Shown here in pieces: positions 11,485 to 55,980 of a stretch of 64,000 nt of DNA. Position 1 is the stretch's first letter. Each line of letters starts with the position of its first letter. The DNA lies in assembly GCA_035041965.1 (NCBI GenBank), contig JAPYMA010003038.1:124001-188000 (forward strand), given 5' to 3'. The notes under the pieces are model-generated. The model was not told the origin of the DNA. It ran no database searches and was given only the letters and a program-made list of their open reading frames with translations. This stretch comes from Anisakis pegreffii. Its lineage: Eukaryota; Nematoda; Chromadorea; Rhabditida; Anisakidae. The translations under genes were made by a program, and so were the position numbers.

Positions 11485-11545
11485 AGTTCTTGGAGATCCA
11501 TGAATGACCCACCTGGTACTGTTTCGGACGGAGATCGCCCAACAG
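11485..11545 (+). promoter_or_regulatory. Likely trans-splice acceptor, short 5' UTR and first coding exon of the giant gene
   Basis: The stretch ATTTTTACAG ends at 11486 and is followed 13 bases later by ATG at 11500. The exon codes for MNDPPGTVSDGDRPT and stops at 11545 before the donor GTGAGG. It leaves one base (G), which joins GA at 12396 to give glycine and continues as WVRLQLEP. An acceptor so close to the start codon, with no supported upstream exon, is what spliced-leader trans-splicing looks like in nematodes; an ordinary upstream non-coding exon cannot be excluded. A 154-codon minus-strand reading covers the same bases but has no splice or homology support. Confidence 0.7.
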
Positions 11546-14500
11546 GTGAGGATATTAAACCAATATTTGAGCAATCCAATTAATTTTTTCTGAGAGCTGC
11601 GCAGAATGTGTGGAGACGATAAGTTGAACCAACTGTTTGAATTTGCATTAATTGCTTTATCGTTGATGTCCAGTGGGGAATCAGACATAATAAAAATAAT
11701 CAATCATTCGGCACTAATCCCTCGATCATGTGAAAAGTGCACGTGATCTTGGCAGTGAATAAGTTAAACAAGTTCATTTGAATGAATTCGTTACGCTTGA
11801 GTAAGTTTAGCTGATACGTAATAGTTAAAAAAACGGAGGTAGGACAAACCCTTGGGTTCCCTTCTCTTTCATTTGCAATGTTGATTACATTTGCTGATTG
11901 CTGAATCACTTTAATCATCATATCTATTTAATTGCGTTCAGTAAGCTAATCGAATAAACAATTTATAAACACGCCACATCCATCTTCCGTCGTATTCTTT
12001 TTTTCGGAAAGTTTGATAGGCTGGATACAGCTGATGGATGAATCTTTCGAAAAACAACATTTGTACCTCCTCATTTTCCTCCTCTTAATGACAACAATTT
12101 CTCGTTTTTTTGCGAAGACAATCAAATTCATAAGATGTTGATTATAAGCAGCAGCGACATTCTTTTCGGTACTTCAGAAAAATTTTCAATTGCAACGGAA
12201 TTTTTCAAATTAAGGGGTCTTTAACTTTTAGATTTATGATGGAAATCCCATAAATTTTCAGAAATGACCATGAGAGGAATTTCATTGGTGCACTGGGATA
12301 TGTAATTGTGTCACATGAGCCAACCTTTTAGAGAGAATGACCCTCAACGTGAACAAATTGAAATTTCAAATTGACGTGGTCTGAATTGGTTTCAGGATGG
12401 GTGCGTTTGCAGCTTGAGCCGGTCGATGTGCCATTAGAAGCGGACGAGTCGTTGCTGCTCTCAACTGTTCAGTCAGCGATTCCCGGTGCTCATGGCCTTT
12501 ATTATAAAGAAGATGATCAAAAGAAAGCATTTCGGTCGGTGTTTGTTCGACAATTCAGTTCCTCTTTAACTAGTTAAGGGGTTGGGATTTTAGACTTGAA
12601 TGATCAACTATATCACTGAACGACAGGCTGAAGAAATCAAGCTGACCGCTCTGGTGGCTTGGGATGAACATTTTCTATGATCTGAACCATTCTATAGTCT
12701 AACTGGAGAATCACTGAAGCACTAGTATTCCTGGTGGGTCATAGGATCAATGTGTTGCTTTCTCTGCGCTTAAATTCATTTTTTATTCGCGGCTAACCAC
12801 TAAAAGTGATGTTTGTTGGGAACGACAAGAGTTGGAATTGCATGGTTCCGTTTTGCTGTAATTGGATATTCCGAAACTTCAGTTATGAGAAGGCCACCAA
12901 ATTGGTTGACCGGCTTGGACAAATGAATTTACGCAGATAATAATGTCCTTTACCTCAATTGCAGAAAACTTTTCTGCGGTATTGTTTAAGAAATATTCCG
13001 GTTTCAAAGAGACCAGTAGATTGTTTGTATGTAGTTTTTATAAATTCAATGCAATAACTGATTGTTTAGAGGAGTTGCGAAATAAGTTAGGCTCTGTTCG
13101 AATGAAAGTTCTGAAATGGTATACTGAGAAAGTTACGGTTTCATGGAGTGATATATGAAAGATTATCCTTTTTTTCTCAGCGAATAAACAGTCAATGAAA
13201 TCAGCAAATATTGTGATTTATTTCAGTTTTGACTCTAATACTGGAAAGTTCTATCAAGGGCAACTGGGATGGAATGCGAAACCGATTTTCGTCAATCTGG
13301 GTGAGTAGAACTTATATCAAAGCATTTTTTTTGAATCAAGGCACTGGATGAAATAATGCAGAGTGAATTATAAATATGTACCGCCTTCCTGCATTTACTG
13401 CTTTCTCAAATCGTTCACTTTTTCGCAAGTCTTTGGGCGCTCCTTACAGTGCAGTTTAACAGAGGCTCATCGAGTGCGATTTTCACACGCTTCAGGACAA
13501 TTTAATAAGCATTCAATGAATTTCCCATCCATACTCAAACTTGAAATATTGATTAGGTAAGTTATTTTCTTAGAAAACATTCGAATCGGTATTCAGAAGC
13601 CCTTGGAAAAAAATGTCGAGCATCGGTTTCTGATATTGCCGTTCCGCTCATTCATATGAGTTGACGAAAGTTGATGATGTACTAATCAGTTCAATGCGCT
13701 TTATTGCATTCCTCTTATTGAACTTTGTGGCTTGAGTTTTATATTGAGCCAAACTTTTCTTTTTCAATCGTATGTTGTATAGGTGCGTCAGACATAAAAA
13801 TAATCATAAGACAAACGGATAATACTTTTGATTGGGACATTGAATGCATTTAATTGTTATGGTATTTTCAAAATTGAGTCTCAAATGAAATGAAACGCTG
13901 AACAAATGCGAAATTTCAATAGTCACAAACTGTGAAATGTCAGTTTTGTTTTATTTTTATCACACATCAACGACATCGACCATCTGATCAATCACTGAAT
14001 TCATTTATCATATTCGCTGATCGCATGTTTGAAGATGTCTTCAGTGGCGGTCATTTTGGGGCGTTCATTATTGTATCGATGAGCTTGAATTGCATAGAAA
14101 CTAAGGTTGACATAGAACCACTGATGACACGCATATCAAAGTGTATGGACTTAACTACTATTCATTTGCAGAATAACTCAAGGGAAAGCTTTTGGAGTTT
14201 ACTGACACTGATAATAATATATACGGCAATATGATTTATTATTTTCAGCACATGGATGTCGAACACTTACACTTGGCCAGTATGAGAGCGCAACAAAAAC
14301 ATTTGAGAAATCTGTTTCTGCGGTTGAGCGCATGCTAGGTAACAGCTGGTTGATTCATTTTGATTCCACATAGATTTCTTTTTGCATTTTTTTCTGAATT
14401 GACGTTGACCTTGAAGAGCGTTAACGAAGTGCATTGTGCCGTACCTGAAACGTTGAAAATGACTTATTGCAGGAGCAAGTGATTGGAGGACGGGAGCTAC

Positions 14501-17500
14501 CGCACAGGTATTTGATATAATTTTTTCTCCCTTTCTTCCTCTTCAGTGAATGAGTATTCTGTTACGTAGTAAACAAAAAATGGAACAGCAGTTAGATGCA
14601 TCGTAATGAAGCATTTTCTTTCTGAATCCAATGTGTATTTGTCTGATAGGACAATAGAGCCAGCTCACGCCCTTTAAGAATGTTGCATGAATAGAGGATT
14701 CCCAACATTTTATCCATCAGAAGGAAGTTGACGGCACACTGAGTTTTACTGTTCACGTTCAGCAAGGAACATCAAGATCAAGAGAGACACGACGTTTCGA
14801 AGACAGGGAGAAAACACATGAGAAACGACTGACAAGACCAACGAAAAGCGGTTTTGAAGCTCAAGCCGAAGCATTGGAAGATCATAGTGATGGATCTGTA
14901 AGTTCAGCATATTCGAGCGTTAAAACCTCATATCAATCAAAGCAGGATGTGGTCCTTTTAATCGGATTCGTGTGAATCTTTATAAAAAGATGCGACCAAA
15001 ATAAGAGAGGTTCTTTCGAAATTAATTGACTTCAGATCGATTCCGCAACATCTAAGGAACTCCTCAAGCTCCAAGAGGAAAACGAGAACTTGAAACAAGA
15101 GTAAGTTGAACGAGTTATCGTAACTGAACTCTCACGTTTGTTTCTGATGATTGACAATCCATTAACGATCATAAGGTGTATTCACCTTTCGTGAAATGTC
15201 GCTATAACGGTTACCTCTAACTATCTTTTAGACTGCATACCATCAGAGACAACTGCAGTAAATTCGAGCACGATGTAAAGGAGAAGGGTAAGGACCTAAT
15301 GGAGGCACGTCTTAGGTAAATATTTTAACTCTTCAATGCCTGTGTGATTACTAAACGACCGACCCATGGACCTTTTTCGCTGCCTGTTCGCGTTAGAAAA
15401 AAAAAACATGAAACATGAACTTTTTGGAGTATCGGAACTGTTCGTCTCAATAAAACTGCACCTTTTTTGAGGTTTCAATTTATCTCTGTCGCAATCCTAC
15501 AGCCAAATGAAGTGATAGAGTCGTTTGAAAGTCACGTGGGTAGTAGTATAACATTTCTGAAGTGCTCCAAAATGTTGACTGCAATGGACGTGCAGCATTT
15601 TCTGGCGAATAAATACTGTTGCTTGCAGTATCTTACGTATCTGACTGCAACTGGTTGTCAATATAATGCACTATTGATATGAGTTGGTTTCACTACAGTA
15701 ACCTCACAGTCTTTTAGTTCATTCTGTATGCCAGCTCATTGTTGCAAAGCTCTTCTAATTCTTGTGTAGTGAATAAAGGGAAGCAATCTTGTTCAGCAGC
15801 GAGTTCATATGAGACGAGCCAAATGCGGTTCAAATATGAATTGATGTCATTGAAGATAGCTTAGATGCACTATTGAAAAAACTTGAAATCGCCCACAGGT
15901 GACAAGATATTCCTGTAGAAAATGTAGGCAGCTGAGTGTGAAAAGTTGATGATCCTTGAGCTACCCCAATTCGACACTGCAATATGTTGCATTCAAAAAG
16001 GCCAAATAAAATCAACCCTTTGAGCTCGAATTGGATACGCCTCGATTACGGAAAGCTGAAGACTATTGTGAAGCATATCAATGAGTAATTGAGGTGATGC
16101 ATTAGAAGTGACGATAAAGATGAGAGTAAACGGGATCCACGTGACCCCGCAAGAATCGTGGACGTGATAAGCGTACTGTGTCAATGTTCCATTCAACACT
16201 ATACTTGCGATGGATTTCTTTAAAATTAAATTTACAGAGAAATCGTCTTTTAGTATCGCCTGCTCATTTTGATTCATTTTTCAAGCGATCACCTAAAAAT
16301 TACAAACAGTGAACGACGCTGAAGTAATACTGAAATCCTCAGACTTGATCAGCTGTTTTTTTAGAATAGATGAACTGTTGAGAGAGATCGAGCACATAAA
16401 ACCAACTGGATATTTGGACAGTTCCATAACAGAAAGGTTACTATTATATTTTGAGCTGCTGTTGTTCGTGATGTAATGAACTCCCCAATCCAATTTCATA
16501 AATGAGCGGCTGGCTACGACATAATTTATATTTCTTCGAAAATGTCATTCAGAACTTCAGAGGTTTTACAATCGAATTCATCAGAGAACATTTTGAGAAC
16601 ATTCATAGCTGCCGCTTTTTTATTTGAACTTTTCCGTTTTGAACAACGACCATACCAGTGATATGAAAACAAAGAAAAAACCGTACAAAAAATGTCAGCA
16701 GCATTTTCGACTCTTTTCGCGTTTCATTCTCAAGCAGGTTTTTTTGTTTCAAAGACAATGTGATAGTGCATTTCACGTTTTCAACGTGATGTCGTCCTAT
16801 CCAAATTCTCATTCTCGCACTTTCAGTGAACGTGCTTTGTATACCACCACCACCGTCATCAGCACACCTCAGGTAATCTAGATTTACTTTTGAAAAAATC
16901 CTTTCATCAGTTTCTGCTACTCATTCTGATCAATCATCTTGTTTAAGCAGGAGAAATTTCCTTCAAACATCGGCATAGGTTACAACGCTTTTCCTTCATT
17001 ATGATGAGCTCAAATTAGAACAAACGACAAAATTAGTTCATTTTTGGAATGGCTGGGATTATTCGATATATGTGAAACTGAATATGTGAAACTGATTAAT
17101 TCAGAAAACACCCCTACTTGATCTGGAAGAGTTTGTCAACTTGAAACGCGTAAAAGAAGAGTAAGTTTACTCTTTGCTGAAGTCTGTCAAAAAATTCAGA
17201 GTACTTTGACAAAAGTCTTTATTATTTTCGACTGAATATGCAGTAAACTGCAAGCCTGATACGTGACTGATTTATATTGAATATTGTTCCGTTGATTACG
17301 GATACGCGTGATCAATTTTTGGACTATTACCTTCCGGTCAACACTGATCATTCAAAACGAAGAATTGAAAAGAAAGTTTATGAGATAGCAAAATTATAAA
17401 TCCAGGAAGGCATTATTTATTTTGGTGGATGTGTTTTATCTATTAAAAAACACAGCGTGAGCTTGTGTTGATTTGGTCATACCTGTTCATAAAGATCTAT

Positions 17501-20500
17501 TTTAAAGAGCGGAGCGCGAACTCGCTCGTGAACGTGAGAACATCGAGCAACTAGAGAAGATCAGGAATGAACAGGTTGACACAATCAGCAAGTTGGAATG
17601 GAGCCTTGGCGAACACAAGCATTGGCTTGAGGATGCTAGATCTAAGTAATTTACGAACTGATTTCACACTTGCGTTCATTCATTCGCTGATTCGATTCCA
17701 TAAATATTAAACCGCCTCATTTTTTGAAAGAATTACGTTAAACAAAACATTGCAAGTTCATCTTCTAGTTTCATCATGAAAGATTATTTCAGAGTCAATC
17801 AGTTAGAAGGTCAAATCAATGGGCAAACTGCTGAATTTGAACGAACTCGTTCGGATCTGCAATCACAAATCGATCATTTGCACGAAATGTGAATTTTAAA
17901 CTTTTCTCAAAGTCGCATAAACGCTTATCATGCTATTACAACTACGAAACGCAAAGTCATGACATTCTCAATCTTAGCTTACAGCCACCTAATCATGTTT
18001 TTGTAAATCGCTCGGCTAGTATTGAATTTCTTAAACAATAAGTCTATTGAGCAACGATTCTATAAATCAATGTCTCGGCCGTAAATACAATATAGTAAAT
18101 GTGTCAGTCAGTAAAAGTAAAGTAACTGACGTTTGCTGGTTATAGGAACTGTCAACTGAAGAATGAACTGCAAATGGAGAGAACTGAAAACGAACGTCTT
18201 AATGCTGAACTTGAAAAACTGAAAACCACCATTGGCGATACACACCCCGAAGTGGGAGCGTGGGAGGACGAGAAAACTAATGTTCGTTTCTTTGTTTCAG
18301 TTAGTCACGTCTTTCGATACTTCAAGCTCTAGTTGATTGAAATAATGCATGATGAAAAGTTGATGTCGTTGATTGTGCAAACTCAACAATTAAACAGTAT
18401 TAATCAAGAACGCACTCTCCTGAGAATAACAGCTACGAGTGCTTGTCAGCCAACACTAGTAATCAGAGTTTGCACGGGATCCCGGGATTCCAGTTCTGAT
18501 CCCGATCCCGAGATTTAATTTTTGAAAAACCCCGGGGTTTCGGAATTTGATAAAACAGGTCAATTTGTGTGGTATGGCCATCTTGAAGCAAGCCTTAATC
18601 ATTCCCATCTCATTCATGTGCAGTCATCTTTGCTGTTTGCCCTCTATCATTGATAAATAGCTAAGGAAATAGACGCAAATTGGACGAATGACATGATCAA
18701 CGACAGGTCGATGAACTTTTATTGAATATTTCATTGAATATTCAATTGATTATTCTGCTCATCATTAGTTTATATCGCGCTTATGTGGATGCATTTTTAA
18801 GTAGACTAACACAGATAATCACATTTTCTAATAAGAACCAGGAGCAACAAATTCAATGAAATTTTGAGTCGTTTTCTCCCACGCAATTTGTTCTGCTTCA
18901 ATATTCCATCTGTTAATTTAACTGCATGTTCTAAAGACTGCAAATCTTTTTAGTTCGCTGTTTGGAAACATTTTCATCCGATCGGAACATACATAAATTC
19001 TCACTGAGTTCACTCATAGTCAAAATTTATTGTCGAATTAAGCAAAATTGTTCCATTCAAAAGGATCTTAAGCTTGTATATTAAGTACATTTCCATGATT
19101 TTTGATCAAAATTATCAAAAAATGCAAGTGCTTAATGGTTCGATGAAAATCCATTGCGGATGTGTTTTTTTCACTTTTTAGATAAACTCCGAACTTTTAA
19201 TTTTTTCAAAATTCAAATGATATAATTCATGCGATGAATTTCTTTCGTAAAATCGAAATTTCCGAAATGGCAGAATTCAGCTGACGTTAACACTGAGCGA
19301 AAATGGACTTGAAGCATCGCAAATAACTGCTTGAGAATCAAGAATTTCATATTCACACGCAAGTGTATTGCTATTAGCTTAGACCCGAGATGACAAGATA
19401 CCTTAGCAGAGAAAATGTAGTATGCCTTGCGGCATGACCATTAGCATCATTGTATGAAATATTAATTTGTAATTGAATAATTTGGTTTCTTGGATTTGTT
19501 CAATAATTTGTTGAATTAGCTCCTTTATGATTAATAATGAACACATGGGTTCGAAAAAATGTGTTTAAACATGTCCCGCATAGATATTTCAAAAGTTGTT
19601 TGATCCCGGGGCTAAATCCCGTTCCGAAGATTGAAAAAACGTTGGGAATTTGCAAACCCTATTAGTGATGTTATTTGCTGAAAAGCTTAAAGGCTGCTTC
19701 CCTATATAGCCACAACCGCTAACAAAAACCACTGATTTAAAATGAACTTCACATCATCCCAGAACTGAATATTTACTCTGGAATTCTCGGTTCCATCGGT
19801 GCTCAAATCCACATTCATAAAATTACTGCAACTGCATCAAATTACTATCATCTCATTCTAGGTCAATGAACAGAACGAAAGTTTTCACTGATTTCTTCTC
19901 ATCTCTCTCAGTCAGGGCTGGCATATAGTCACGCATTCACAGGCAATCAAAAGCAAATTCATCACGCTCGTTGAGTCATGAAATATTTCATCAAAAAATT
20001 TTGGAAATCTTTTTTAAAGTTTTCCAAAATTAGTATCGTGTAGTATCATTCAAAAAAACTTGATTAAGCATACTGTCATCCGGTTCAGTCAAATAATTGT
20101 TCGGTCTGTTGCAGCTCGGAAAGCAGATTGAAGAACTAAAAGGACAAATAACTGCAAAAGAGAATGAAGCTAGGTATCAGATTTGTTCATTTCATATTTT
20201 CATTCCTTCATTCATAATTTGTTTATTCCCTCAAACCGTGCATATTTCAAACTCCCTCTATTGCTCGCCCTATCATTTGCCCAATTGGAATACAACAATT
20301 AGTCAAATCAATTTATCGTCGTTGAAGAAAAAACTTTATTTCCTCATTCATCTATTAAAGTGGTTCGACGATATTGCAAGTATTCCAGTAAGACAACCGT
20401 CATCTCACAAAAACCGAAGTATTTAAAATGCTTCATTATGATAAATGAATCACAACTTTTCAGTGCACTTCGTAGTGAGAATGACTGGCTAAAGAATGAG

Positions 20501-38500: not shown

Positions 38501-41500
38501 TTAGCTCAATAGCATCATCAGTTGAGTGAAAGAAATCAATGAAAGTGTTATTCATTTCAGCAAGAAACATTTTTTGAGCATAAAAAGAGTGAAATTGCTG
38601 AAGTTATGGAAGGATGAACGCCAATTCGTGTAGAAAACATTTTGTGGTTCACCAGACAGAAATACGGTTGCAGATTCACATTAATTTCGTTGCAATTTCA
38701 GTGATCTCAGTAAGACTATTCAAGAACTTCGCCATGCGTTGAAATATCAAGAAATCATCGATTCATTAACGTCAGACAAGAACGATGTCGAAAGATCGCT
38801 AGAGGAAAAAACCACTTTGCTGACTGAGGCCTATGAAAGGTATCCGATTTATTGTATCGAGTAATTCAATGTATTTGCAACAGCTCAGCATCATATTAAT
38901 TGCGATCGGAGTATTCCGAATTGATTTTCTTACAGTGTCCATTTTATGGGTTCCATAAAGATCACTATCAAATCACTATCAAATTTAGTTCAGTGAACTT
39001 CTAATCGAAGTTAATTCCAGAATCAATGAACTAGAGGACTCACTATCAAAAAGTTCTAAAGAGCGTGAAGAAGCGATTGAAAAAGCAGTTATGGAGAGGG
39101 TTAAAGTCATGTCAAAGTTAGTGAAATCAATTGTAATTGCTTCCATTAATTGATGAATTATTCGTTTTGAGATGTGTAATGGATTGTTTATGCTTCAGGG
39201 GAACTGAATATACGAGAAAATTGGAAGAGGACGAGACCTTTGTCCATGAAGAGCGATACGTTGTACCTCGCCGATCAAAATCACCACCCGATGATGTGAG
39301 GTATGGATTGATTTTCAATAAGCAGATTTGCTGACTATACTGATACTTCTCTTCAGCAATTCAGCTAGGTATTTGGGTCTTCGGTCACTCATCTCCATTT
39401 GAGTCCAGATTCTATTGTTTCCATCATTCTATTACGTCAATAATTTTTGCATTCATTGTTCCTTTATCATCTTCATTTTTTTACATTTGAAAGCTTTGTT
39501 GTGCACGAGATACACACCATCTGGCCTCAAGTATACAGCTCGGACTGCAGTATATCCTGAATTCACTCCATCTTTACTGTTAAAAGTTAATTTCAACTAC
39601 TTGTTTCTTTTAGCGATCAGAATATTTTTCAACCCTCCAGATTATTTTACTTTAAACATATCAAGTATGGTGTAGATCATTTCAACGTTGATAACATTCT
39701 TTGCGAATAAATCACATTGTTAACTGAGCGTTTATTGCATACGGCCGATCAACCGGTGCCTAGATGTGGGTTCGTTTCATGTGCAGTTTCGCTAAATCGC
39801 GTAGTACTAATCATCGTTTCTTTTGCATGTTGCGTTTGCGAAATTGACCACTTTTAGATCATTTACTGAACGTTTGCACATTTTATGACGATCAGTTTTG
39901 TTCACTTGTCTTATTCTGTGGTTGTTGTTTGGTGCGTATTTGCATCGTTTGTTGTGCACGGTATTGACGCAACTATGATTGTAAGCAAATCCATAAGCGT
40001 TATTGTCTGATCCAATTTATTTTTGTACACACCGATAGTATTGGAGAAAAAGATTTTCGTAAAATTTGATTTGAGCATATTGAAGTTCATTTTATACGAC
40101 TTGTTATTTTTCCTTTCGATATTTTTTATCTTCAATACACCTGCGATTTCATCAAAGGAATATCTCTTGATTGTCGTTGTATTTTACGATTCAACAGCCT
40201 ACAGTTTCGCCTTCTTTTTTACAAATTTTTGGTTTAATACTTGTAGATGAAGGTGAAAATTACCTGTGAAAGCACAAAGTGAATTGCTTAATGGAATTGC
40301 TTTGTTCGATTTTTTCGTAACTATTGCGGCAGTTTTCATTGAATGACCACTACATGCGTTATCAGTTCCTACTATCATTCGTTGAATGTTTATTTTCAAA
40401 AGAATCTTTTCACTCGTTCACAAAATAATCAGCTACTATAAAATCCTATTATCTTGTTGTCCGTGGTTTTGATTATCCATGTTCGGTCACTTACAACATT
40501 TATAGCGTTTCTCGTGTTAAAATTGTCATTAACCGTCTGTTTGTTCATTCTCGATATGTTCCTGTCTTTCATCTGGAATATTCTGAAGCATCCGGGCTAC
40601 ACTTTGGATTGCTCTAACATTCTTCCACAACATCACTTGCGATTCACTGAAACGTCTATACTACCCTATAATGGCATCCCACAAACATCATTCCGTTGCA
40701 ATGGACAGTTTCAGTAAGTTCGAGGGGTTTTTTGATTTCAACTTATCAAGCAAATTCTGATATAGTTCTAGTAAGCAGTGACTTTGCAGAGGGTATGAAA
40801 ACAAATTTTTACCAATAATTCAGCGTTAGGATAGGATATGAACACATAATTCCTAAGCTAATTCCCATGTTCGGAAGCGCATGTGTTAGACTTTTTCATG
40901 CTTTATCTCAAGTGAAGAAACGTAGGTAAGATACTGACTAATTCCTTCTCAGTTTGTCGATAAAAAGGAGCCAACAGTTCAGTCATTCCGAATTTTCTGT
41001 CATCTGTTACTGACCGCCTCAATAGTGGTTTTTCTTGGTGCTGGTAACTTGTCATCATTCCATTATAGGTTTCTCCTCTCGCTATCCATGTTATATTCTT
41101 CCTGCTCGCAACATTTTCCATTTCCCAATGCCCATCGCTCTTCTACAGTGAAAGTTCGTCGTATTATTATCATTATCAATATGCAATCCCATTCTTGAAT
41201 GGAGTATTATTCAACAAACTAGTTTCATGTTGGTGAACTTGCAGCCAGATTCGTCTACAGTTGGATCAGCTACACAGTGAGATGGAAGCCAAGAACGCCG
41301 AACTCGCAAAAGTTTTAAAGCTTAAAGACGAGGCTGAATGGTGCCTTGGTGAACATCGTCAGTGGCTCAGTGAAGCAAATGACAGGTATTCATTTTTATC
41401 ACTATTCACTTCTGACAGATGCATTGATTCTAATGATAATGTTTGATGCGATTCAAACGTCCAAGATTAAACTGCTATCATTTGAAGCTATAACCAGTGA

Positions 41501-44500
41501 AGTTTTGCTGGAAATGATTTATTTTTAAGATTATTTAAGTTTTGTTGAAAGAAAGTTGTATTAAGATGCTTATGACGAAAGTCGTTGATAATTAAGTCAT
41601 GCCCTATCGTGAACAACGCATTTCATAAGTGCAGCCTTCTGATTGATAGTTATTTACATTTTTCAACGTTTAAACAGATTAAGAACAAAAAAATTGTTCG
41701 TCTACTCTTTACAACACAATCAACAAGCGATCGTAGAGCTAAATGACTGCGTATTCCATTTTGATATAGCATTTCGTTTAATAACCTTACGGGGCATTTG
41801 TCACACAAGTGATTTGATGGACTCTGCTCATCGGTGATAAATACTTCTTTGAAACCAATTTGCAAAAACTTTGCATTTTATACGAATATTTCATTTGCAT
41901 ACGAAAAAAGCATTTTCTTGTTGTTTTGCGGGGTAAAACGAAAATAAATTTTCCATTTAAAATATAGACGTATAATTTGAACTTTGAACACCAGCGAATG
42001 GATTCGGCAGTTCCTATGCAAGCGGTTATCAGTGCTAAGTATTTTTTGCAAGCTGAAAATTTGGAATATTACGTATGTAAACGTCACTATAAAAGTCACG
42101 TGTGCATGTATGTTGTAAATCAGTTTATATTGCCTCCTCATAAACATAAACACATACATCACAGACCTCGTGTTTGATAAGCATTTTACAGTGATGACAT
42201 GCAATCAATTTAGTTTTTCGATGACTTTTTTCGGGGGTTGAATTGAAGCTGAAAGAGTAAACATCTGAAATCAATGGGAGCACACATAAGTATAAATAGT
42301 GGAGTCACGTGTGGGTTGTGATATTGTCCTTGTTGTGATATTGTTCACTAATCAGCAATCAAAGGAATGTATAAGCTTACAGGTTGTTATACGTACCTTT
42401 TTTGTATTTACTATTAATTCTAAGTTCATTTATTCGTAAATTTTCGCATGTTCGCTCAGATGTTTATGGGCAGATATTCATTTTATTGGTTGGACATTTT
42501 TGTATACTTGAACGTAGCTTCTTCATTTGTTCACTTTTTGGTCTCTTTATTTGTTGATTTACTTAAGATCAATTCAATTACTGTATCCACTGAGAACAGC
42601 CAATAAAAAGGAGTGTTTTGATGGGGCGTTTCTCTGTCTCTGAACTGTTTGTCCATAAAACTTTAACGATATGATTACATTTAAGATGCCTCGTAAAGAC
42701 GTGGAATTAGTTGATATATTGCAATTGTTTTTCCCATTTGTTTTGAATTGTTTGTGAGTGCGATCATTTGAAAACTGCACTGAAAAACAGTCAGTTTGAA
42801 AAAGCTGAAGATAAATTGATCGATCTCTCGTTCAGAAGTATCCAATATGGGTTACTGATTACGATCTATATTCCAACATTTTTTAAATTCTGAACTCGTT
42901 CCCAGTTGTTTACAATCAGTCGGTAGTAGAATGCAACAAATTATCATCAGTTACACTGTATTATCTTATCATTCAGCTCATTTTCTGACTCTGCTGCAGA
43001 TTTGGTGCATACGATAACGGCCTTGTTGTACTCAAAAAATATTTGATGTGATTAACGTCACGATATTTTCCGAAACTAATTCAGATTAAATTTACATTCC
43101 AGTTTTTGGGTCCTAGATGAATTTTGATAGCGTGACAATTGAAAATGGCAATGCTTTTAACTGATACATAACCCACCTGAATACCGTTTTGAAATGACTT
43201 TTTTCATAAGTACATGTCTAACGAAACACTGTTCACGAAATTGTGAAGTAAATATTAACATATAAGTCCTCAAACATCATCTGTTTCTATCAGTTCTAAT
43301 GTTTCCCTCCATCGAAAACCGTTCAGTCACTTGATTAACTCATCTGATCAAATAGGCTTTTTGAGTGCTGAATTGCAGCAACAACCTTTCGTTTCTTAAG
43401 AAGTCATTTTGAAACTCGAAAAATTCTTTGCTAACTGGTGGTTTTACGGTATTGGATCAAAATCAATCGCTTTTATATATTTTTTTTCATTCATATTCTA
43501 ATTCAACCCATTTGTATTCTTTTATTCGTTTTAAAATCAGCTGGCTTACGTCTTCATGATACAATAAAATGAAAGTAAGATGGATTGTCCACGTAATGAT
43601 TTCCTTGCAGCAGTTGTTATTGTGTTTTGTCGAATGTAACAGCGCTTTCTAAATCAGTGGGCTTTTAATCAATTCGATATAGAAGTTTTGCTTTTGATAA
43701 GAACATGTTTTTTGCAGACTCACAGATAACATTACTGCTTTATTTTTTATTATAACGATCGGTAGCGTTACTTCGATACGGTATTGTTTTTGTTGCATTA
43801 CTCAGCGACCGCTTTAGGTTGCTGCACTCTTATCGCTCTGTATTCGCTTGCAAATTTGCAAGGAAGTCATCGTGTTGCAATCGCAAATTTGGGTTGTATT
43901 CGAGAACAGAGTATTTGTGAGATGTAGTGAATTAATGACAATCAGCATTTTTGCAATGACACAGTGAAAAATGAAAAATATTTGATATTTTCACTATTCG
44001 GGTGTTTTTCAGAAATTCACAAATGTCGGGTGAACTCGCCGAAAAGCAAAGAGCGATCGATGCTTTGAATGGCGAAAAAGATCGTCTACAAAGTGAGGTG
44101 GCTGCGCTCTCAGATAAATTGAAAGAAACACTTTCAGCTGATGTGGATGGTGTATCGCACACTGAACTGGTGAGTTTGCTTCAGGTTGTATCTTCATTCC
44201 GCTTTATCATAATCTGCGATGAGTTCGAAAAGTGGAATTTATCGATGGATTCAGTAACGGTGTTTATACTCGTTAAAATTTTTGCAATAACTATCACATA
44301 ATACGTTTGAATGCCTGTTTGTTTGTAGTCAGCTGAAGAGACGTGTAGTCTTGAGGCCAAACTGAGAGAAAAAGAAGACCAACTGCATAAGGCAGCCACA
44401 GAAATCGATGAGAAAGAAGAGGAAATCAAGTTAGTTGTCTCCGTTGTTTATGCAATGTTTTCCGCAAGTAAATTTCAGTGGTGAATTCATCAAGCAGCCA

Positions 44501-47500
44501 ATCTGTCATGTTGTTGAAATGAGCTCGTTTTTGCATAGCACTCATCGGTGTTAATGGCATTGATTATCTGAATGCGGCATCATATTCAAATCCGTTTCGT
44601 CCCTATACAAAATTTCTTATTTCAGCAATTTACATCGCGTGATTGAGGACTTGAGAAATGAAATAGCTGATAAAAATCGCACCATTGATGACCTCAATAA
44701 AATAAAAGCTGATACAGAATGGAGTCTTGGAGAACATCGACAATGGCTTGCAGATGCTAACAATCGGTATTGTATAGTCCCTTTACATAAAACAAATATT
44801 AATTCTGATGAGGATACCGATGGAAATGACTGCTAAAGCACGTTCAAACGTGGACAATTTGATTGTTTTTATTGTTGTCGCATCTCACTGCATGATATTT
44901 TCACATAAGAAAACTATATGGTGATCGAGAAAGGTGCTATCGAAATTTTGCATTTATTGTTCCCAGAAAAAAAACCATCCGAACATAAATTCAGCGCTAT
45001 CATTGCAGAGCTAATTGGTTAGAGAGCGAAATGAACAAAGCAAGAAGTGAAGCGAATGTGAAACAAGCTGAAAATGAAAATTTGGGTCAACGAATTAATG
45101 AGAAAGACAAGGAAATCGCTTCTTTGGTCGATAAGTAAGATATTCGAACTCGAATTTGCAAATGCTGAACACTTTGGAATGCTAAGCAGTGGTGACAACA
45201 TGAATACAATATTTATCCATTTTTGATTGAAAGGCGATCCGTATGATTATGCTAAAACAAAACGTGCTCGATAGATTCGCAAAGCAGTCATTCGGTTACT
45301 TGAAAGAGAGATTCTCGCAACAGATTGCATGGCCTTTTGTTTTGTAAATAAACAGCTAAACAACCAATGTCTGACACTGTTTTCTTTTTAATTTTTTTAA
45401 TATGTTTAATAACTCGTCAACTTTCACAAAACATCCGTAGCCATTCCAGCACGAACACTCTGTTGATTAATTTCACTTGTAAATCGCTCTTTAAAATGAA
45501 TTCTTCTGATATTTGTGAACGCAGTGATCAAAATGAATAGAGCTACATGCAAAGAACGCATACAAATATTCTCCTAGCTGTGACTGTTGTTGCCATAGAC
45601 GATTCAGCTTCATGCATTTCATTCAGGATTGAGGAAGCAAGTTCGGTTGTTCCTGCTACGGTAACAGAATCTGGAATGCCACTGACAGCAAACGAGGTAC
45701 GACAATGTTAATACGACAATCTACCTCATAATTACTCGGATAGATTTTGAGTGCTTCTCTTCAGCTTCAATCTTCTTTTCTCAGCAGAATCGAATTCACC
45801 ATTCGTTCCATATGATTTCTCACCCATGAATGAAACTTCTTTTATCATCTTTGATTTTAATTTGCTGAATTGCTTCACCAGAGTTCACAATTTTTATGTT
45901 GTGCACATAGTGTGATAGTTGTATCATCAGAAAATGTTTAGTTATCTTAATCAGATATGTCATTTGTAAATGATTCAGGAAGAACTCAGAATGCTTCAAG
46001 CCAAACTGAAGAATGCCGTTGAGAAGAGTGAACTGATTCAGAACCAACTTGATGATGCACTCTTGCAGATTGTTCGTTTTTCATTTGAATTTGGTTTGAG
46101 TTCACAATAATTTGCCATGCACCTATTGTTATCCACTAAATTATATGAAACATTTACGTCTCCTACACACGGAACAAATTATTTTTTCATCTTAGTCTTT
46201 CATTACTGTGAACCCTGCAGTAATATTTAAATTCAGGAATTCCTACATCGCCAGGCTGATAATCAGAAGTATCAAGAATCAATAGCAAGTACTGGTGAAA
46301 GTGAGTATTGCTCATCGGATATCCTATTTCTCTATTCGTGATCTTTAGTTGTGTTTTGTACACTGACGTCCTACTTGAACGCTTCTGTGACGATTCTTAG
46401 TCTGAACGGATCGTTCTGCTATCGATTCTTAGTTCTGCGCAATCAAAAAAACTTTACCTGTCGTTGAATGAAGAGGTTTCTGAGTGTGCAATGAAGCAGT
46501 GAATGTAATTCTACTAAGTTGCTTATTCTAATTCGCAATAGTTCTACCCATTCAGTCGAAATGTCATTTCCCTTCCAGCTCTTAATTCGTCTAAATGCAC
46601 TCATTCTCTTATGATTAGTGCTCCTTATTTTAGAATCGCCGAGCACTGTTGAGCCAACAGTTTCAGCAACTGATCTAGATGAGTTATCGGAGGAACTTAT
46701 TAAAGTGAGCCGTAACAAATACGATTTGCAAGAAAAGGTATGCATTATTCATATGGACAAAAATAACCATTCGATCAGAACTACCTTACCAATGGTGAAA
46801 TAAGTGCATTCTCATATCTCTCAACTGTTGAAAATTTGGGATCGTATTTGGATTGTTTTCGGATGGACAGAAAATTTAATGAAAGAAAACAACTGTGAAT
46901 GATAATTACGGATGTTTAAGTGATAGTTCAGTTGGAGCTTGTATCATTATCAGTTTGCTAAACGTTTCAGTTGAAACGCGTTGAAAAGGAGGCAGAAGCA
47001 TCGAAAGAACGTGTACTGTTTTTGGAAAGTGAAACACGTCGTATGGGAGAAGAACTGTGGATTGCGAATGAAAGAGTCGCCAATCAAGGTCGTGAACTCG
47101 GTGACGTTCATGGACAGTTGTCATGGCTGAAGAGCGAGAATGAAAGATTGAGTAAGGAAATGGAAGAGGAAAAAAGAAAGGTTAGGTTACGTCTCTTTTC
47201 CAAGTTGAATGATTTGTGAATGATTTTAGTGTGCACAATTTTATTTCTAATGATGCAAACATCTCACAAATCTATTGTATGATTCTGAATTTATCACATG
47301 TTTATCAGTACAGCAACGTCTTCTGATTCAAGCATTACCTGTCAATTCAACACTTTAAGTTCATGGAGGCTGGTGGAGTTGATTACTCAAAATATGAAGA
47401 GATGTCCAGAGCGGTTGATACACTTCGCGTTGAAAAGAGCAAACTCGAATGGAATCTCGGAGAAGTAACGCAATGGTGGAACGATGCTAAATGGAGGTGA

Positions 47501-49385
47501 GTATGTAGTGAAGTTCGCGTTATTTTTATTGAACGCGGGCACATTGTTATCATGCAGTGATACCGTTGTTATTACTATCAGTATCACCATTATCATACAT
47601 CGCATTTGACATGTATTTTAGTCCGCATAAATTATTTTATTACCTACTGCTGATATCATTATATTTACTTTAATCAGTTTCCTTCATAGGTTGTACTGTG
47701 CTTGACTCAAAAAGCCTTTGTAAACTCGAGTTCATCATCAAATATTCAGTTCTTTGATGGTTCAAATATTCTTGTTTAAATTAATTAAGCACTGTGATTG
47801 ATTCATTTCGTTGAGTTCTGCAAGTAAACAGGATTGAATAATATCACTTTGCTGATCTCTTAGGGTCGGAGAACTCGAAGCTGGTATGGCCCACCGACAA
47901 TGGTTGCTTGATCAGGCCAACCAGAAGGTATTCGAACTTTCATCCGAGTGAGTATATTTTTGTATTTTTTTCTGTTCATTCAACGTATTCTCAGTTCTAT
48001 CTCTATCTCATTCTGACATTGTACTGTTCTTAAAATATCAGTTAAAGATAAGAGATTTTTTTCCATCCCCCACGTTCTATATTTTAGTCAATATTTGCAT
48101 TATTTTATCGCCTTTATGATTTCTCATGTCTTTGTAATCCTAGACATGAATCGTTACTTCAATTCCGTGACCAAACTAAAAACACACTCGATGGAACATT
48201 CCTAATACGTAAACAACCTAGTGATGGCCGATATAAGTGGCGTTTAGCAATGTGGTAAATACTTTTTCACTTCCATTTCAATTTTAATAATCCCGATTAG
48301 CGTTCAACTTTTATGTAGACAATTTTTATGTCTCGACGAACAGTTTTTCGTATGAATTCATTTGGATGAACTCATTTTATTTGAATGAACAACGGCTCAT
48401 CGAATTACCTGATGTAACATTCGATAATTTTTCCAATCGACGGCCTTGTGCTCGAACTACGAAAATTTTGAGTTCCTCATTTGTTTATCTTTTTCAATTG
48501 CGTTACTCCACACATCTCACCAAAAAATCTCTTGATATCGCTCTCAATTGTTTCCTTTCTCGCTTACTATTAGACCGTCACTGAAATTCAACTGAAACAG
48601 AAATTCATTTTCGAAGTCACATGTCGTCGATTGTAGGGATGAGAACTCACCTGATGACCTCAAAGAATATCGACGGGTTTGGTTTGAAACAACAGCTCCG
48701 GAAGCTAAACGCGTCTTTTTATCCGTAAGTGGCTATGAATTAAACTTTTAAGCAAAATTCCTTCCTAGAATGGGTAATTACTTCATGCGAATGATGTATC
48801 GTCGACTAAATGTTAAGTGAAGCAAACGTATTAAAATTTGCTGACGAGTTCAAACATTAACCGATATGGCTGTAATCCAGACATGCTGATCGCGTCTAAT
48901 GTCTCAGTACAAAAAATACGTAGTTTTTGGGCACTTGTTAAAAAACATTTATGTCAGTTGATTATTTGTTCTATATCAGTTGATTATTCGTTTGATGGAC
49001 AACTCAGCTAAATACTACATCAGCCGGTACACATTCACATACTCTGTGAGCATATAACCAAGTTCAGATTTCATCACTTAATTAAGTGTTTGCTGAATTA
49101 CTAAGTGGTTTGTGTAATGTCTGATAAATCTGATTTTGAATGAATCATTATTTCCATGGCTCAAATAAGTCACCAATACTTCAGGCAACATTCGTGAATT
49201 GGGAATGTGCGTTGGTGTGTAATAAATTCGATGAAGCGAATGGCAAATTTGGTGTTTGGGTTGATATTCCACCAGGTCGTTATGAATTTTTGTTCGTTGT
49301 TGATGGTGAATGGAGAACATCTGAGCTATATCCCACCGTACCGAATGATTTCGGATCACAAAATAATTGGAGATATATTGATTAG
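11500..49385 (+). CDS. Giant modular coiled-coil protein: TDP-43-type N-terminal domain, repeated LGEHRQWL modules, C-terminal AMPK-type glycogen-binding domain
   Basis: I assembled 89 exons by matching acceptor and donor sites to reading phase; every junction keeps one frame from the ATG at 11500 to the TAG at 49383-49385. The visible coding length is about 10,560 nt (about 3,520 residues), with one exon cut by an assembly gap at 23797-23806. Residues 1-90 resemble the TDP-43 N-terminal domain. From about residue 175 the chain is highly charged heptad-like coiled coil carrying 23 complete L[GE]EH[RK]xWL motifs, one cut by the gap and three decayed ones. The last ~95 residues match the AMPK-beta CBM48. 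No signal peptide or membrane segment is visible, so a cytoplasmic protein is likely. It stands alone, with no same-strand neighbour. The exon lists are given in the segment entries. I do not recognise a named orthologue. The scaffold or glycogen-tether role is inference; the domain calls rest on motifs I can read. Confidence 0.86.
12396..13300 (+). other. TDP-43 N-terminal-domain-like region (two exons, 12396-12534 and 13227-13300)
   Basis: The two exons join through codon CG|T. The first half reads VRLQLEPVDVPLEADES, then LLLSTVQSAIPGAHGLYYK. This parallels the TDP-43 N-terminal domain, which carries an LLSTV segment followed by a PGA-x-GL-x-Y segment at the same spacing. The second half ends GQLGWNAKPIFVNLG, matching the GW-x-NLVYVVNYP strand of TDP-43, including its conserved tryptophan. 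In TDP-43 this is a DIX/ubiquitin-like fold that oligomerises head to tail. No RRM domains follow here, so this is not a TDP-43 orthologue but the domain placed on another protein. Homology is called by eye; a profile search for TDP43_N would settle it. Confidence 0.72.
14249..17160 (+). other. Linker segment of the giant protein between the N-terminal domain and the first module
   Basis: Exons: 14249-14338, 14473-14507, 14763-14897, 15036-15100, 15232-15315, 16827-16872 and 17105-17160. The first codes for a helix-like stretch (YESATKTFEKSVSAVERMLG). The next is short and ends in TAQ. Then comes a basic, arginine-rich segment with several RE and EK repeats (14763-14897), likely disordered, followed by the first coiled-coil heptads (KELLKLQEENENLKQE). 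The exon at 16827-16872 codes for a threonine-rich spacer (LYTTTTVISTP). All phases agree. The 1.5-kb intron 15316-16826 shows no supported exon. Confidence 0.75.
17508..23796 (+). other. Modules 1-5 of the coiled-coil rod
   Basis: Exons: 17508-17645, 17793-17888, 18146-18281, 20115-20173, 20464-20604, 20931-21021, 21232-21326, 21499-21630, 21854-21980, 22307-22401, 22807-22947, 23252-23363, 23443-23528 and 23701-23796 (cut by the gap). Motif exons carry LGEHKHWLEDARSK, LGEHRQWLSDANNR, LEEHRQWLDDANNR and LGEHKQWLNDEKNR. The exon before the gap has the upstream part of a fifth copy but ends just before the motif. The typical motif exon is 141 nt with phase 2 at both ends, so copies can be added or lost without a frameshift. 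The end of exon 18146-18281 is uncertain: the donor could be GTGGGA at 18252 or GTTCGT at 18282, both in phase. Confidence 0.78.
18464..19661. mobile_element. Non-autonomous hAT-like element (about 1.2 kb) in an intron
   Basis: The left end reads CAGAGTTTGCACGGGATCCC; the right end on the other strand reads TAGGGTTTGCAAATTCCC. The two ends match over GTTTGCA. They are flanked by imperfect 8-base direct repeats, CTAGTAAT (18456-18463) and TTAGTGAT (19662-19669), six of eight matching. An 8-bp target duplication and CAGRG-type ends are the hAT signature. No transposase-sized reading frame is inside. The element lies in the intron 18282-20114 of the giant gene and accounts for most of its length. 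Confidence 0.62.
23797..23806. other. Assembly gap (10 N) inside a motif exon
   Basis: Ten N join two contigs. The left side stops inside a 141-nt motif exon, 45 nt short of its expected end. The right side starts in mid-intron at a point identical to 28004 and 32201. The true gap length and the number of missing modules are unknown. The fixed size of 10 suggests a scaffold join rather than a measured gap. Confidence 0.97.
23807..28003 (+). repeat. 4,197-bp tandem unit, copy 1 (16 exons, 722 codons)
   Basis: Exons: 23904-24042, 24202-24287, 24479-24619, 24706-24834, 24957-25097, 25207-25341, 25451-25591, 25701-25832, 25935-26075, 26171-26296, 26450-26720, 26830-26915, 27121-27261, 27372-27501, 27616-27701 and 27849-27989. 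They sum to 2,166 nt, exactly 722 codons, entered and left in phase 2. Seven exons carry the LGEHRQWL motif or its LEEHRQWL form. The intervening exons follow the pattern R-A-N-G-LE-x-AL-x-DK and end in an acidic spacer such as GVSVDEFK. In 26450-26720 the usual intron between motif exon and partner exon is absent. The unit starts at the gap, so its true left edge is not seen. Confidence 0.9.
28004..32200 (+). repeat. 4,197-bp tandem unit, copy 2
   Basis: All 16 exons recur at +4,197: 28101-28239, 28399-28484, 28676-28816, 28903-29031, 29154-29294, 29404-29538, 29648-29788, 29898-30029, 30132-30272, 30368-30493, 30647-30917, 31027-31112, 31318-31458, 31569-31698, 31813-31898 and 32046-32186. 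I found no difference from copy 1 wherever I compared them, introns included. This adds seven LGEHRQWL motifs and 722 residues. Identity of introns over 4 kb means either a very recent tandem duplication or gene conversion, or a duplicated contig made by the assembler; the N gap at the left edge of copy 1 makes the last option serious. Confidence 0.88.
32201..33017 (+). repeat. Tandem unit, partial third copy (about 815 bp)
   Basis: Exons 32297-32435, 32595-32680 and 32872-33012 repeat the first three exons of the unit. This copy differs slightly from copies 1 and 2: CTATCGACAAATTTG becomes CTATCAAAAATTTG near 32230 (one base shorter), GAAATGTTG becomes GAAATATTG near 32455, and AGATATTG becomes AGATACTG near 32560. 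Similarity stops a few bases after the splice donor at 33013, where unique sequence takes over. Because this copy is distinct, at least part of the duplication is real DNA. Confidence 0.88.
33114..39300 (+). other. Rod segment after the tandem units (divergent modules)
   Basis: Exons: 33114-33261, 33880-34037, 34358-34430, 34595-34689, 35464-35610, 35966-36061, 36239-36389, 36584-36681, 36993-37133, 37550-37645, 37966-38089, 38309-38364, 38702-38839, 39021-39116 and 39199-39300. Intact motifs occur in 35464-35610 (LGEHRQWLADSKNR) and 36993-37133 (LGEHRQWLTEEKRK). In 33880-34037 the motif has decayed to IREQIQWTEDANKR. The exon at 39199-39300 ends in a basic, proline-containing spacer (VVPRRSKSPPDD). 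These modules are clearly older and less alike than those in the tandem units. Donor choice for the first exon is ambiguous (33222 or 33261, both in phase). Confidence 0.78.
34172..34327. mobile_element. GC-rich TA-flanked MITE (156 bp) in an intron
   Basis: The ends are inverted repeats: GTGTTCGTCGGGGAGC at the left and, on the other strand, GTGTTCGTCGAGGAAC at the right. Both are flanked by TA, the target duplication of Tc1/mariner-type elements. The body is strongly GC-rich against the AT-rich host. It lies in the intron between exons 33880-34037 and 34358-34430. Related copies are near 52070-52236 and 58960-59056. Confidence 0.72.
41245..47947 (+). other. Last rod modules before the glycogen-binding domain
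   Basis: Exons: 41245-41385, 44013-44169, 44329-44429, 44626-44766, 45009-45134, 45627-45696, 45979-46071, 46237-46300, 46634-46737, 46971-47180, 47360-47496 and 47864-47947. Two intact motifs: LGEHRQWLSEANDR (41245-41385) and LGEHRQWLADANNR (44626-44766). Two decayed ones close the series: LGEVTQWWNDAKWR (47360-47496) and GMAHRQWLLDQANQK (47864-47947). The 210-nt exon 46971-47180 is uninterrupted coiled coil. The introns 39301-41244 and 41386-44012 are the longest in the gene (1.9 and 2.6 kb) and show no supported exon, repeat or element. Confidence 0.78.
48144..49385 (+). other. C-terminal AMPK-beta-type glycogen-binding domain (CBM48)
   Basis: Exons 48144-48254, 48637-48724 and 49185-49385 (TAG at 49383-49385). 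The order of features fits the AMPK1_CBM family: a strand ending VFLSATFVNW (the GSFNNW position), then PPGRYEFLFVVDGEW (the EHQYKFFVDGQW position), then a turn with PTVPNDFGSQNN before the end. Of the four AMPK-beta residues I recall as contacting glycogen, both tryptophans and the asparagine are present, while the lysine position reads as leucine. The part before it (GTFLIRKQPSDGRYKWRLAMW) may be an extra strand or a linker. No kinase-binding C-terminal domain of AMPK-beta follows, so this is not an AMPK subunit. Confidence 0.85.
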
Positions 49386-49547: not shown

Positions 49548-49553
49548 AATAAA
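49548..49553 (+). terminator. Polyadenylation signal of the giant gene
   Basis: AATAAA lies 163 bases after the TAG at 49385, in AT-rich sequence. It is the first canonical hexamer downstream of the stop codon on this strand outside the coding sequence. Confidence 0.6.
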
Positions 49554-55317: not shown

Positions 55318-55980
55318 ACCAACAACTGCAGAATCCACCTCTACATCTGAACCAACCACAACAGAATCCACCTCTACATCTGAACCAACCACAACAGAAT
55401 CCACCTCTACATCTGAACCAACAACTACAGAATCCACCTCTACATCTGAACCAACAACTACAGAATCCACCTCTACATCTGAACCAACAACTGCAGAATC
55501 CACCTCTACATCTGAACCAACAACTGCAGAATCCACCTCTACATCTGAACCAACCACAACAGAATCCACCTCTACATCTGAGCCAATAACTACAGAATCC
55601 ACCTCTACATCTGAACCAACAACTACAGAATCCACCTCTACATCTGAACCAACAACTACAGAATCCACCCGTACATCTGAACCAACAACTACAGAACCCA
55701 CCTCTAGATCTGAACCAACCACAACAGAATCCACCTCTACATCTGAGCCAATGACTACATAATCCACCTCTACATCTGAACCAACCACAACAGAATCCAC
55801 CTCTACATCTGAACCAACCACAACAGAATCCACCTCTACATCTGAACCAACAACTACAGAATCCACCTCTGCATTCCAACCAACAACTATAGAATCCATC
55901 TCTACATTCCAACCAACAACTACAGAATCCACAACAACATCTAAATCAACCACTACAGAGCCCACCTCTACACCTGGACC
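52759..55980 (+). repeat. 33-bp coding minisatellite, about 97 units
   Basis: The unit is an 11-codon block, STSTSEPTTTE in the plus frame. Variants recur in a fixed order (GCAGAA for alanine, CCACAACAGAA, GAGCCAATAACT, ACACCTGAA), so blocks of several units have been copied together, a higher-order structure. The last units (after about 55865) have drifted (GCATTCCAACC, AAATCAACC). Because 33 is a multiple of three and the unit lacks stops in several frames, very long open readings appear on both strands. Confidence 0.95.

What the first reader, a model, noticed from the sequence alone, without database searches (positions are those of the whole stretch)
11500..49385. A giant protein joining a TDP-43-type polymerising domain, a modular coiled coil and a glycogen-binding domain
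The first ~90 residues carry the LLSTV, PGA-x-GL-x-Y and GW blocks of the TDP-43 N-terminal domain. The last ~95 carry the AMPK-beta CBM48 pattern. Between them lie about 3,300 residues of coiled coil built from repeats. In TDP-43 the N-terminal domain forms head-to-tail chains, and CBM48 binds glycogen. Together they suggest a filament or long tether anchored on glycogen, perhaps ordering glycogen granules in muscle or another storage tissue. The domains are visible; the function is inference. I know of no described system with this combination.
Basis: partly seen in the sequence, partly recalled or inferred. Interest (0 to 1): 0.93.

Follow-up and report, generated by a model that had tools for sequence, protein, structure and literature searches.

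The report
Giant worm protein, possible glycogen tether
A roundworm gene appears to encode a very long rod-shaped protein with a self-assembly domain known from the human protein TDP-43 at one end and a glycogen-binding type of domain at the other, so it may tie together the animal's stored sugar, although nobody has tested that.

Summary
A 122.7-Mb nematode genome (132 exact SL1 sites, 0 in the control) carries, on the + strand at window ~12.4-49.4 kb, a chain of exons that starts with a TDP-43 N-terminal domain (Pfam 65.6 bits, E 3.7e-18), runs through ~3,200 residues of modular coiled coil and ends in an AMPK-type CBM48 domain (50.1 bits, E 3.2e-13). The coil exons are coding: gene-finder score 1200.8 against 24.9 (other strand) and 29.5-50.9 (5 shuffles), with mostly synonymous differences between repeats. 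A paralogue on another contig has the same TDP-43 domain, a homologous next exon, then coil-like exons.

Caveats: 3,489 aa as assembled, 2,767 without one near-identical 4.2-kb tandem copy beside a gap. The first coding exon is unresolved. The CBM junction rests on splice phase and Pfam coverage, not RNA, and the unforced gene finder did not pick it. Some interface and glycogen-contact residues are changed.

Best reading: a self-associating rod that anchors or cross-links glycogen. Anatomy likely (~0.8); glycogen function inferred (~0.42). It resembles plant PTST and Ccd1 in layout and is filed under neither.

The parts
12315..12348 (+). Provisional first coding exon (MSQPFRENDPQ): placeholder chosen by the gene finder, not supported
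   Evidence: the phase-1 acceptor at 12396 implies some upstream exon
12396..12540 (+). Exon with first two thirds of the TDP-43_N domain (WVRLQLEPVDVPLEADESLLLSTVQSAIPGAHGLYYKEDDQKKAFRSV); exact donor (12540 or another nearby) uncertain
   Evidence: 44% over 36 aa to the C174 paralogue, E 1.1e-8
13227..13300 (+). Exon with last third of TDP-43_N (FDSNTGKFYQGQLGWNAKPIFVNL)
   Evidence: the Pfam match then reaches profile position 73/74
14249..14338 (+). Conserved linker exon (HGCRTLTLGQYESATKTFEKSVSAVERML)
   Evidence: matches the exon after TDP-43_N in the C174 paralogue, 47% over 30 columns, E 1.7e-5
14473..23363 (+). N-terminal part of the coiled-coil rod (exons 5-23 of the model); short exons before ~17.5 kb less certain
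23797..23806 (.). 10-N assembly gap interrupting model exon 23701-23825
   Evidence: (printed 0-based there)
23443..33222 (+). Most regular part of the rod: ~47-aa exon ending GEHRQWLxDANN, ~43-aa exon, optional ~28-aa exon; modules of ~90 or ~120 aa
   Evidence: in 10 pairs of module exons 158 synonymous and 105 non-synonymous codon differences, 19% synonymous expected
28004..32200 (+). Second copy of a 4,197-bp tandem unit (first copy 23807-28003, partial third 32201-33015)
   Evidence: self-alignments at 99.92% over 5,013 bases and 99.51% over 816
33880..47947 (+). C-terminal part of the coiled-coil rod (exons 62-87), last HRQWL motif in 47864-47947
48637..48724 (+). Exon with acidic linker and first strand of CBM48 (DENSPDDLKEYRRVWFETTAPEAKRVFLS), phase-2 acceptor, donor gtaagt; no Met
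49185..49385 (+). Last exon: CBM48/AMPK1_CBM core and stop

Best explanation
One gene encodes a giant rod protein. SHOWN by sequence: TDP-43-type N-terminal domain; a conserved ~30-residue linker; ~2,500-3,200 residues of coiled coil built from ~90- or ~120-residue modules with prolines between them; C-terminal AMPK-type CBM48 (its join to the rod is likely, not shown). INFERRED: the rod dimerises through the coil, so each particle carries two CBM48 domains at one end; the TDP-43-type heads associate weakly head to tail (with copies of itself or with the C174 paralogue), giving clusters or short chains from which long, hinged rods radiate; the CBM48 ends bind branched alpha-glucan. The net effect would be to cross-link glycogen particles or hold them a few hundred nanometres from a fixed site.
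For: Pfam matches at both ends, over curated cut-offs; PDB sequence matches to TDP-43 NTD (5x4f, E 9e-5) and AMPK beta-2 CBM (4y0g, E 1.8e-7). Gene-finder score 1200.8 against 24.9 on the other strand and 29.5-50.9 on 5 dinucleotide shuffles. Coiled-coil periodicity. Purifying selection on module exons. The C174 paralogue has TDP-43_N, a homologous linker exon and coil-like exons (by eye) on one strand within ~4 kb, so the TDP-43_N/coil neighbourhood is seen at two loci. For the CBM join: donor gtgagt at 47947 is in phase with acceptor 48637; exon 48637-48724 supplies the first CBM strand and neither CBM exon has a Met. W100 and W133 equivalents are present; the acidic face E14/E17/E21 is kept as E/D/E.
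Against: No RNA evidence. The unforced gene-finder path did not choose the CBM ending (it ended at 49552) and began at 11500; the end junctions of the final model were given bonuses after reading the sequence. The first full codon after the 47947 donor is a stop, TGA, inside the donor itself, so the rod could end there. An in-frame ATG at 49140 runs straight into the last exon (81-aa frame). Stand-alone CBM models score low (-4.2 best; -13.6 from 49140), but the joined path's 21.1 is nearly all due to the coil exons themselves (12.9 + 7.3), and the last CBM exon has a negative coding score (-3.5), so this comparison is weak. K126 equivalent is L and R55 equivalent is F. Single-sequence AlphaFold models of window pieces were poor (pLDDT 59.2 and 55.8) and Foldseek on the CBM model found nothing at E<=0.001. 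No orthologue could be sought in other species. A check for glycogen synthase did not complete.
Confidence: 0.42

Rival explanations
1. Same single giant protein, but the CBM48 has turned into a protein-docking domain (for a kinase or a cytoskeletal partner) and does not bind glycogen; the protein is a cytoplasmic linker rod.
For: K126 equivalent is L; each of W100, K126, W133, L146, T148 mattered in AMPK beta1 (PMC2642990, passages read). Its score (50.1 bits) is half that of the C56 gene (100.8 bits).
Against: F and S at the L146 and T148 sites are shared with the high-scoring C56 gene, so they are not a sign of decay. Both tryptophans are kept, and mutating the two aligned tryptophans together abolished starch binding in PTST (PMC4339375, passages read).
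Confidence: 0.25
2. Two genes: a TDP-43_N/coiled-coil protein ending just after 47947, and a small CBM48 gene whose first exon lies in 47.95-48.6 kb, starts at the in-frame ATG 49140, or is trans-spliced.
For: TGA is the first full codon after the 47947 donor and an in-frame ATG lies at 49140; the genome holds SL1, so trans-splicing is expected; the unforced finder did not take the CBM ending.
Against: The donor at 47947 is gtgagt and in phase with the 48637 acceptor; a start at 49140 would lose the first CBM strand and scores -13.6; the best stand-alone model scores -4.2.
Confidence: 0.17
3. Single protein whose TDP-43-type domain does not polymerise but makes a one-to-one contact, for example with the C174 paralogue, so no filament forms.
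For: R55 equivalent is F and the S48 region is different and one residue longer; in the gapped alignment the paralogue has K at the R52 and V at the R55 position, so neither has the full basic face.
Against: The acidic face and contact residues I16/P19 are kept as E/D/E and V/P, and each protein keeps one basic residue on the other face.
Confidence: 0.14
4. Assembly artefact: unrelated exons brought together by scaffolding across the gap at 23797.
For: A 10-N gap lies inside the gene and the sequence after it is a near-perfect tandem repeat.
Against: Module exons on both sides of the gap are homologous (window 20465, 22832 and 23705 before it), and all 29 matches that the search scored at E<=0.001 are on this contig (such counts are lower bounds).
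Confidence: 0.02

Closest known systems
TDP-43 (TARDBP / nematode TDP-1), N-terminal domain
   Same: Same Pfam domain (PF18694, 65.6 bits); acidic face kept
   Different: No RRM in the 2,636 of 3,489 model residues scanned (for the middle piece the best 25 of 31 families were shown); the domain caps a coiled-coil rod
AMPK beta subunit carbohydrate-binding module (CBM48, AMPK1_CBM)
   Same: Same Pfam domain, both glycogen-contact tryptophans, FGSQNN block like the C56 gene
   Different: No AMPKBI alpha/gamma-binding domain reported; CBM at the extreme C-terminus; K126 equivalent is L
Plant PTST (PROTEIN TARGETING TO STARCH) proteins
   Same: Coiled coil followed by C-terminal CBM48; PTST brings GBSS to starch (PMC4339375, passages read)
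   Different: Plants, plastid; PTST is far shorter (recalled); no TDP-43-type domain in the passages read; homology of the coils not tested
Ccd1 (Coiled-coil-DIX1)
   Same: Head-to-tail DIX domain with ubiquitin-like fold in a coiled-coil protein (PMC5552852, start of abstract in search listing only)
   Different: DIX is a different Pfam family (recalled); Wnt signalling; a carbohydrate-binding domain is not part of it as far as I recall
MFP1 of chloroplasts
   Same: Coiled-coil protein that fixes where alpha-glucan granules start (PMC10801857, abstract, part of the introduction and outline seen)
   Different: Anchored by an N-terminal transmembrane domain (section heading); the term CBM48 does not occur in that paper (count 0)

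Membership tests
TDP-43 / TDP-1 | TDP-43_N domain | tested here: met
   65.6 bits, E 3.7e-18
TDP-43 / TDP-1 | two RRMs | tested here: not met
   no RRM listed at E<=0.001 in 2,636 of 3,489 model residues; for the 721-aa middle piece 25 of 31 families shown; the rest is mostly tandem-copy repeats
TDP-43 / TDP-1 | charged head and tail interface residues | tested here: inconclusive
   E14/E17/E21 are E/D/E; R52/R55 are R/F in the alignment; residue list from PMC5491494
AMPK beta subunit | AMPK1_CBM / CBM48 | tested here: met
   50.1 bits
AMPK beta subunit | C-terminal alpha/gamma-binding (AMPKBI) domain | tested here: not met
   not among the 2 families listed for the C-terminal 1,121 aa; the protein ends right after the CBM
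AMPK beta subunit | glycogen-contact residues W100, K126, W133, L146, T148 | tested here: inconclusive
   W, L, W, F, S (positions placed by me)
Coiled-coil/CBM48 glucan-targeting layout (PTST-like) | coiled coil N-terminal to a C-terminal CBM48 | tested here: met
   if the CBM join is right
Coiled-coil/CBM48 glucan-targeting layout (PTST-like) | common descent with PTST | not tested
   protein database off
DIX proteins (Ccd1, Dishevelled, Axin) | DIX domain by profile | tested here: not met
   TDP-43_N is the only family reported for the first 200 aa at E<=0.01

The most novel reading that the evidence does not exclude
A dedicated glycogen-organising polymer in nematodes: TDP-43-type heads form a head-to-tail backbone from which hinged coiled-coil rods of a few hundred nanometres project, each ending in paired CBM48 domains that capture glycogen particles, possibly co-polymerising with the C174 paralogue, in which no CBM48 was detected. 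It would be a non-RNA use of the TDP-43 polymerisation domain and an animal counterpart of plant starch-granule scaffolds.
Probability: 0.25. Interest if true: 0.85.

Novelty: new variant of a known kind. Interest (0 to 1): 0.62.

Why it matters
If the protein self-assembles and binds glycogen, it would be an animal scaffold that physically orders glycogen, a role known for coiled-coil and CBM48 proteins on plant starch. It would also show the TDP-43 polymerisation domain working outside RNA biology, in a worm with a second such coiled-coil protein, giving natural sequence variants of an interface of medical interest. The claim is directly testable with two small recombinant domains.

Tried and rejected
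Structure prediction of the CBM exon and of the 47-residue TDP-43_N exon from single sequences gave low confidence, and Foldseek on the CBM model gave no match at E<=0.001: uninformative, not negative. The first gene-finder runs were over-permissive (discarded) or missed the ends.

Considered and rejected: that the coil is a known myosin, intermediate-filament or HOOK protein. Pfam coiled-coil matches are many and mutually inconsistent (6, 31 and 2 families for three pieces), and a 228-residue coil piece has no PDB sequence match at E<=0.001. Considered: that the C37 or C1359 CBM48 genes are relatives of this gene. The C37 model scores only 79 and shows no coil-like exon by eye; C1359 lies among other coil-like exons, but a stop follows its CBM and the model there is unreliable. 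A weak match of window 14721-14789 to C174 (E 0.023) was left aside as possible chance; one search listed only part of its 58 matches, by filters on E-value and position.

The gene-finder trace of the C174 paralogue put its linker exon in the wrong frame through a spurious exon; the frame used here is the direct splice of the two exons printed in that call. I first took C56 for AMPK beta; its CBM scores 100.8 bits, but an open frame that I took for the AMPKBI part had no Pfam match, so it is called only a CBM48 gene here.

Literature (open-licence PubMed Central only; for these searches I saw listings, not papers): one search asked for at least 3 of 4 terms ('TDP-43 N-terminal domain', 'glycogen-binding', 'coiled-coil', 'nematode') and returned 1 paper, a TDP-43 review. 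Searches (20 of 122 listed; 20 of 41; 8 of 12; 8 of 12) listed no title or abstract start about this combination.

Full report
WHAT WAS CHECKED. The window is G000:C1710:124001-188000 of a 122.7-Mb genome in 1,740 contigs. Species was not identified.

END DOMAINS. A six-frame search of the genome with Pfam TDP-43_N gave 4 places, one of them window 12416-12538 (55.9 bits); AMPK1_CBM gave 5 places, one of them window 49176-49382 (46.8 bits); all 4 and all 5 were marked over the cut-off, the fifth CBM place only together with its neighbours (only best candidates are scored). Splicing in the next exon (13227-13300, carrying the GW block) gives 65.6 bits over profile 11-73/74; splicing exon 48637-48724 to 49185-49385 gives 50.1 bits. 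By sequence alone the N-terminus matches solved TDP-43 NTD (best 5x4f, E 9e-5; 8 of 8 sequences at E<=0.1 are TDP-43) and the C-terminus matches AMPK beta CBMs (best 4y0g, E 1.8e-7; of 19 sequences at E<=0.01, 15 are named AMPK beta, 1 is SIP2 and 3 are plant glucan phosphatases).

THE ROD. A home-made Viterbi gene finder gives 89 exons and 3,489 residues (end junctions given bonuses). Without any imposed site it scores 1200.8 with 91 exons on the + strand, starting at 11500 and ending at 49552; the opposite strand of the same 38.6 kb scores 24.9, five dinucleotide shuffles score 29.5-50.9, and 30 kb of contig C37 scores 52.8. Introns are all GT-AG, but the finder allows no others; phases 2/0/1 = 59/24/5, median 174.5 bp. 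The rod (model residues 176-3390) is E 15.6%, L 11.5%, P 1.4%, with a hydrophobic period of 3.5 residues, power 1.22 against a maximum of 0.26 in 50 shuffles. Twenty-three copies of an LGEHRQWLxDANN-like motif were found; 16 of the 22 spacings are 89-92 or 119-122 residues (tandem copies included). Ten pairs among five related 141-bp exons differ by 158 synonymous and 105 non-synonymous codons, where single-base changes would be 19% synonymous: these exons are translated and constrained. All 29 matches at E<=0.001 to a 90-residue module in the whole genome fall inside this gene (C1710:144465-168770; counts are lower bounds).

ASSEMBLY CAVEAT. A 10-N gap at 23797-23806 lies inside a model exon. 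Right after it, a 4,197-bp unit is present 2.2 times (23807-28003, 28004-32200, 32201-33015) at 99.92% over 5,013 bases and 99.51% over 816. The second copy encodes 722 residues; without it the protein has 2,767. Real copy number is unknown.

IS IT ONE GENE? N-terminal join: a paralogue on contig C174 has the best TDP-43_N of the genome (79.9 bits), followed by an exon 47% identical over 30 columns to window 14254-14340 (E 1.7e-5) and, on the same strand within about 4 kb, coil-like exons (by eye). Both TDP-43_N coding blocks begin and end in phase 1 (read), the window gene having one extra intron. So TDP-43_N next to coiled coil is seen twice. C-terminal join: the last coil exon ends at 47947 with donor gtgagt in phase with acceptor 48637; exon 48637-48724 supplies the first CBM strand; neither CBM exon has a Met. 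Against: the first full codon after the 47947 donor is a stop (TGA), and an in-frame ATG at 49140 runs into the last exon. A stand-alone CBM gene after 47950 scores -4.2 at best and -13.6 from 49140, but the joined path's 21.1 is nearly all from the two coil exons (12.9 + 7.3), so the score comparison is weak; with no bonus the finder also preferred a slightly different CBM path (48676/48753) and, over the whole region, missed the CBM ending. I put single-gene status at about 0.8.

WHAT THE DOMAINS CAN STILL DO. In TDP-43, E14, E17, E21 and R52, R55 form the two polymerising faces, and E17A/E21A or R52A/R55A abolish polymerisation (PMC5491494, passages read); head-to-tail chains were also found by PMC5830921 (passages read). 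In the alignment the window protein has E, D, E and R, F, and keeps I16/P19 as V/P; the C174 paralogue has K and V at the last two in a gapped alignment. In AMPK beta1, mutating W100, K126, W133, L146 or T148 markedly reduced glycogen binding (PMC2642990, passages read). The window CBM has W, L, W, F, S; the highest-scoring CBM48 gene examined in the same genome (C56, 100.8 bits) has W, K, W, F, S (positions placed by me). Glucan binding is plausible; the K-to-L change is the main doubt.

MECHANISM PROPOSED. Rod dimerises (inferred from the coil); heads associate, alone or with the C174 paralogue (inferred); paired CBM48 ends bind glycogen (inferred). At 0.148 nm per residue (general knowledge) the rod could span up to about 0.4-0.5 micrometre if fully extended; the prolines between modules should make it flexible. 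The layout resembles plant PTST, where the coiled coil binds an enzyme and the CBM48, through two tryptophans aligned with W100/W133, binds starch (PMC4339375, passages read), and MFP1, a coiled-coil protein that sets where starch granules start (PMC10801857, abstract, part of the introduction and outline). It 'works like' these only by inference and is not filed as a member of them, of TDP-43 (no RRM) or of AMPK beta (no AMPKBI domain); Pfam on 2,636 of 3,489 residues listed neither.

WHAT COULD NOT BE DONE. The protein database was off, so presence in C. elegans or other nematodes is unknown; an annotated but undiscussed orthologue may well exist. Structure models were single-sequence and poor. 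Presence of glycogen synthase did not complete; C. elegans stores glycogen (PMC5481799, abstract start in search listing).

Noticed in passing
52755-55980: 33-bp tandem array, 97.7 copies at 92%, open for 867 codons on the + strand (TESTSTSEPTT repeats) and for 860 on the - strand; looks like a mucin-type Ser/Thr/Pro protein or a coding-like satellite.
   Followed up: no
61007-61325: 29-bp tandem array, 11 copies, 99% matches.
   Followed up: no
L010-L015 (G000:C374:1-60000): Two TDP-43-like genes with RRM-like exons about 30 kb apart; the contig's tetranucleotide profile correlates 0.65-0.74 with the other six sets, which correlate 0.87-0.94 with each other, so it may be foreign DNA. Outside C374 the RRM query found 3 weak places (33-37% identity) of 8 in all, so the worm's own TDP-1 was not located.
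   Followed up: partly
L016/L021 (G000:C174, - strand, about 141.0 kb downwards): Paralogue with TDP-43_N, conserved linker exon and coil-like exons; RRMs were not searched for in it, and no CBM match was reported on this contig.
   Followed up: partly
L017 (G000:C37:354232-354441) and L019 (G000:C1359:49578-49685): Two further CBM48-type genes besides the one on C56; C37 scores 69.3 bits, C1359 41.4 bits.
   Followed up: partly
L030-L036 (G000:C14:549-3882): SL1 sequence recurs every 552 bp, 7 times, on contig C14, as expected of a spliced-leader repeat array.
   Followed up: no
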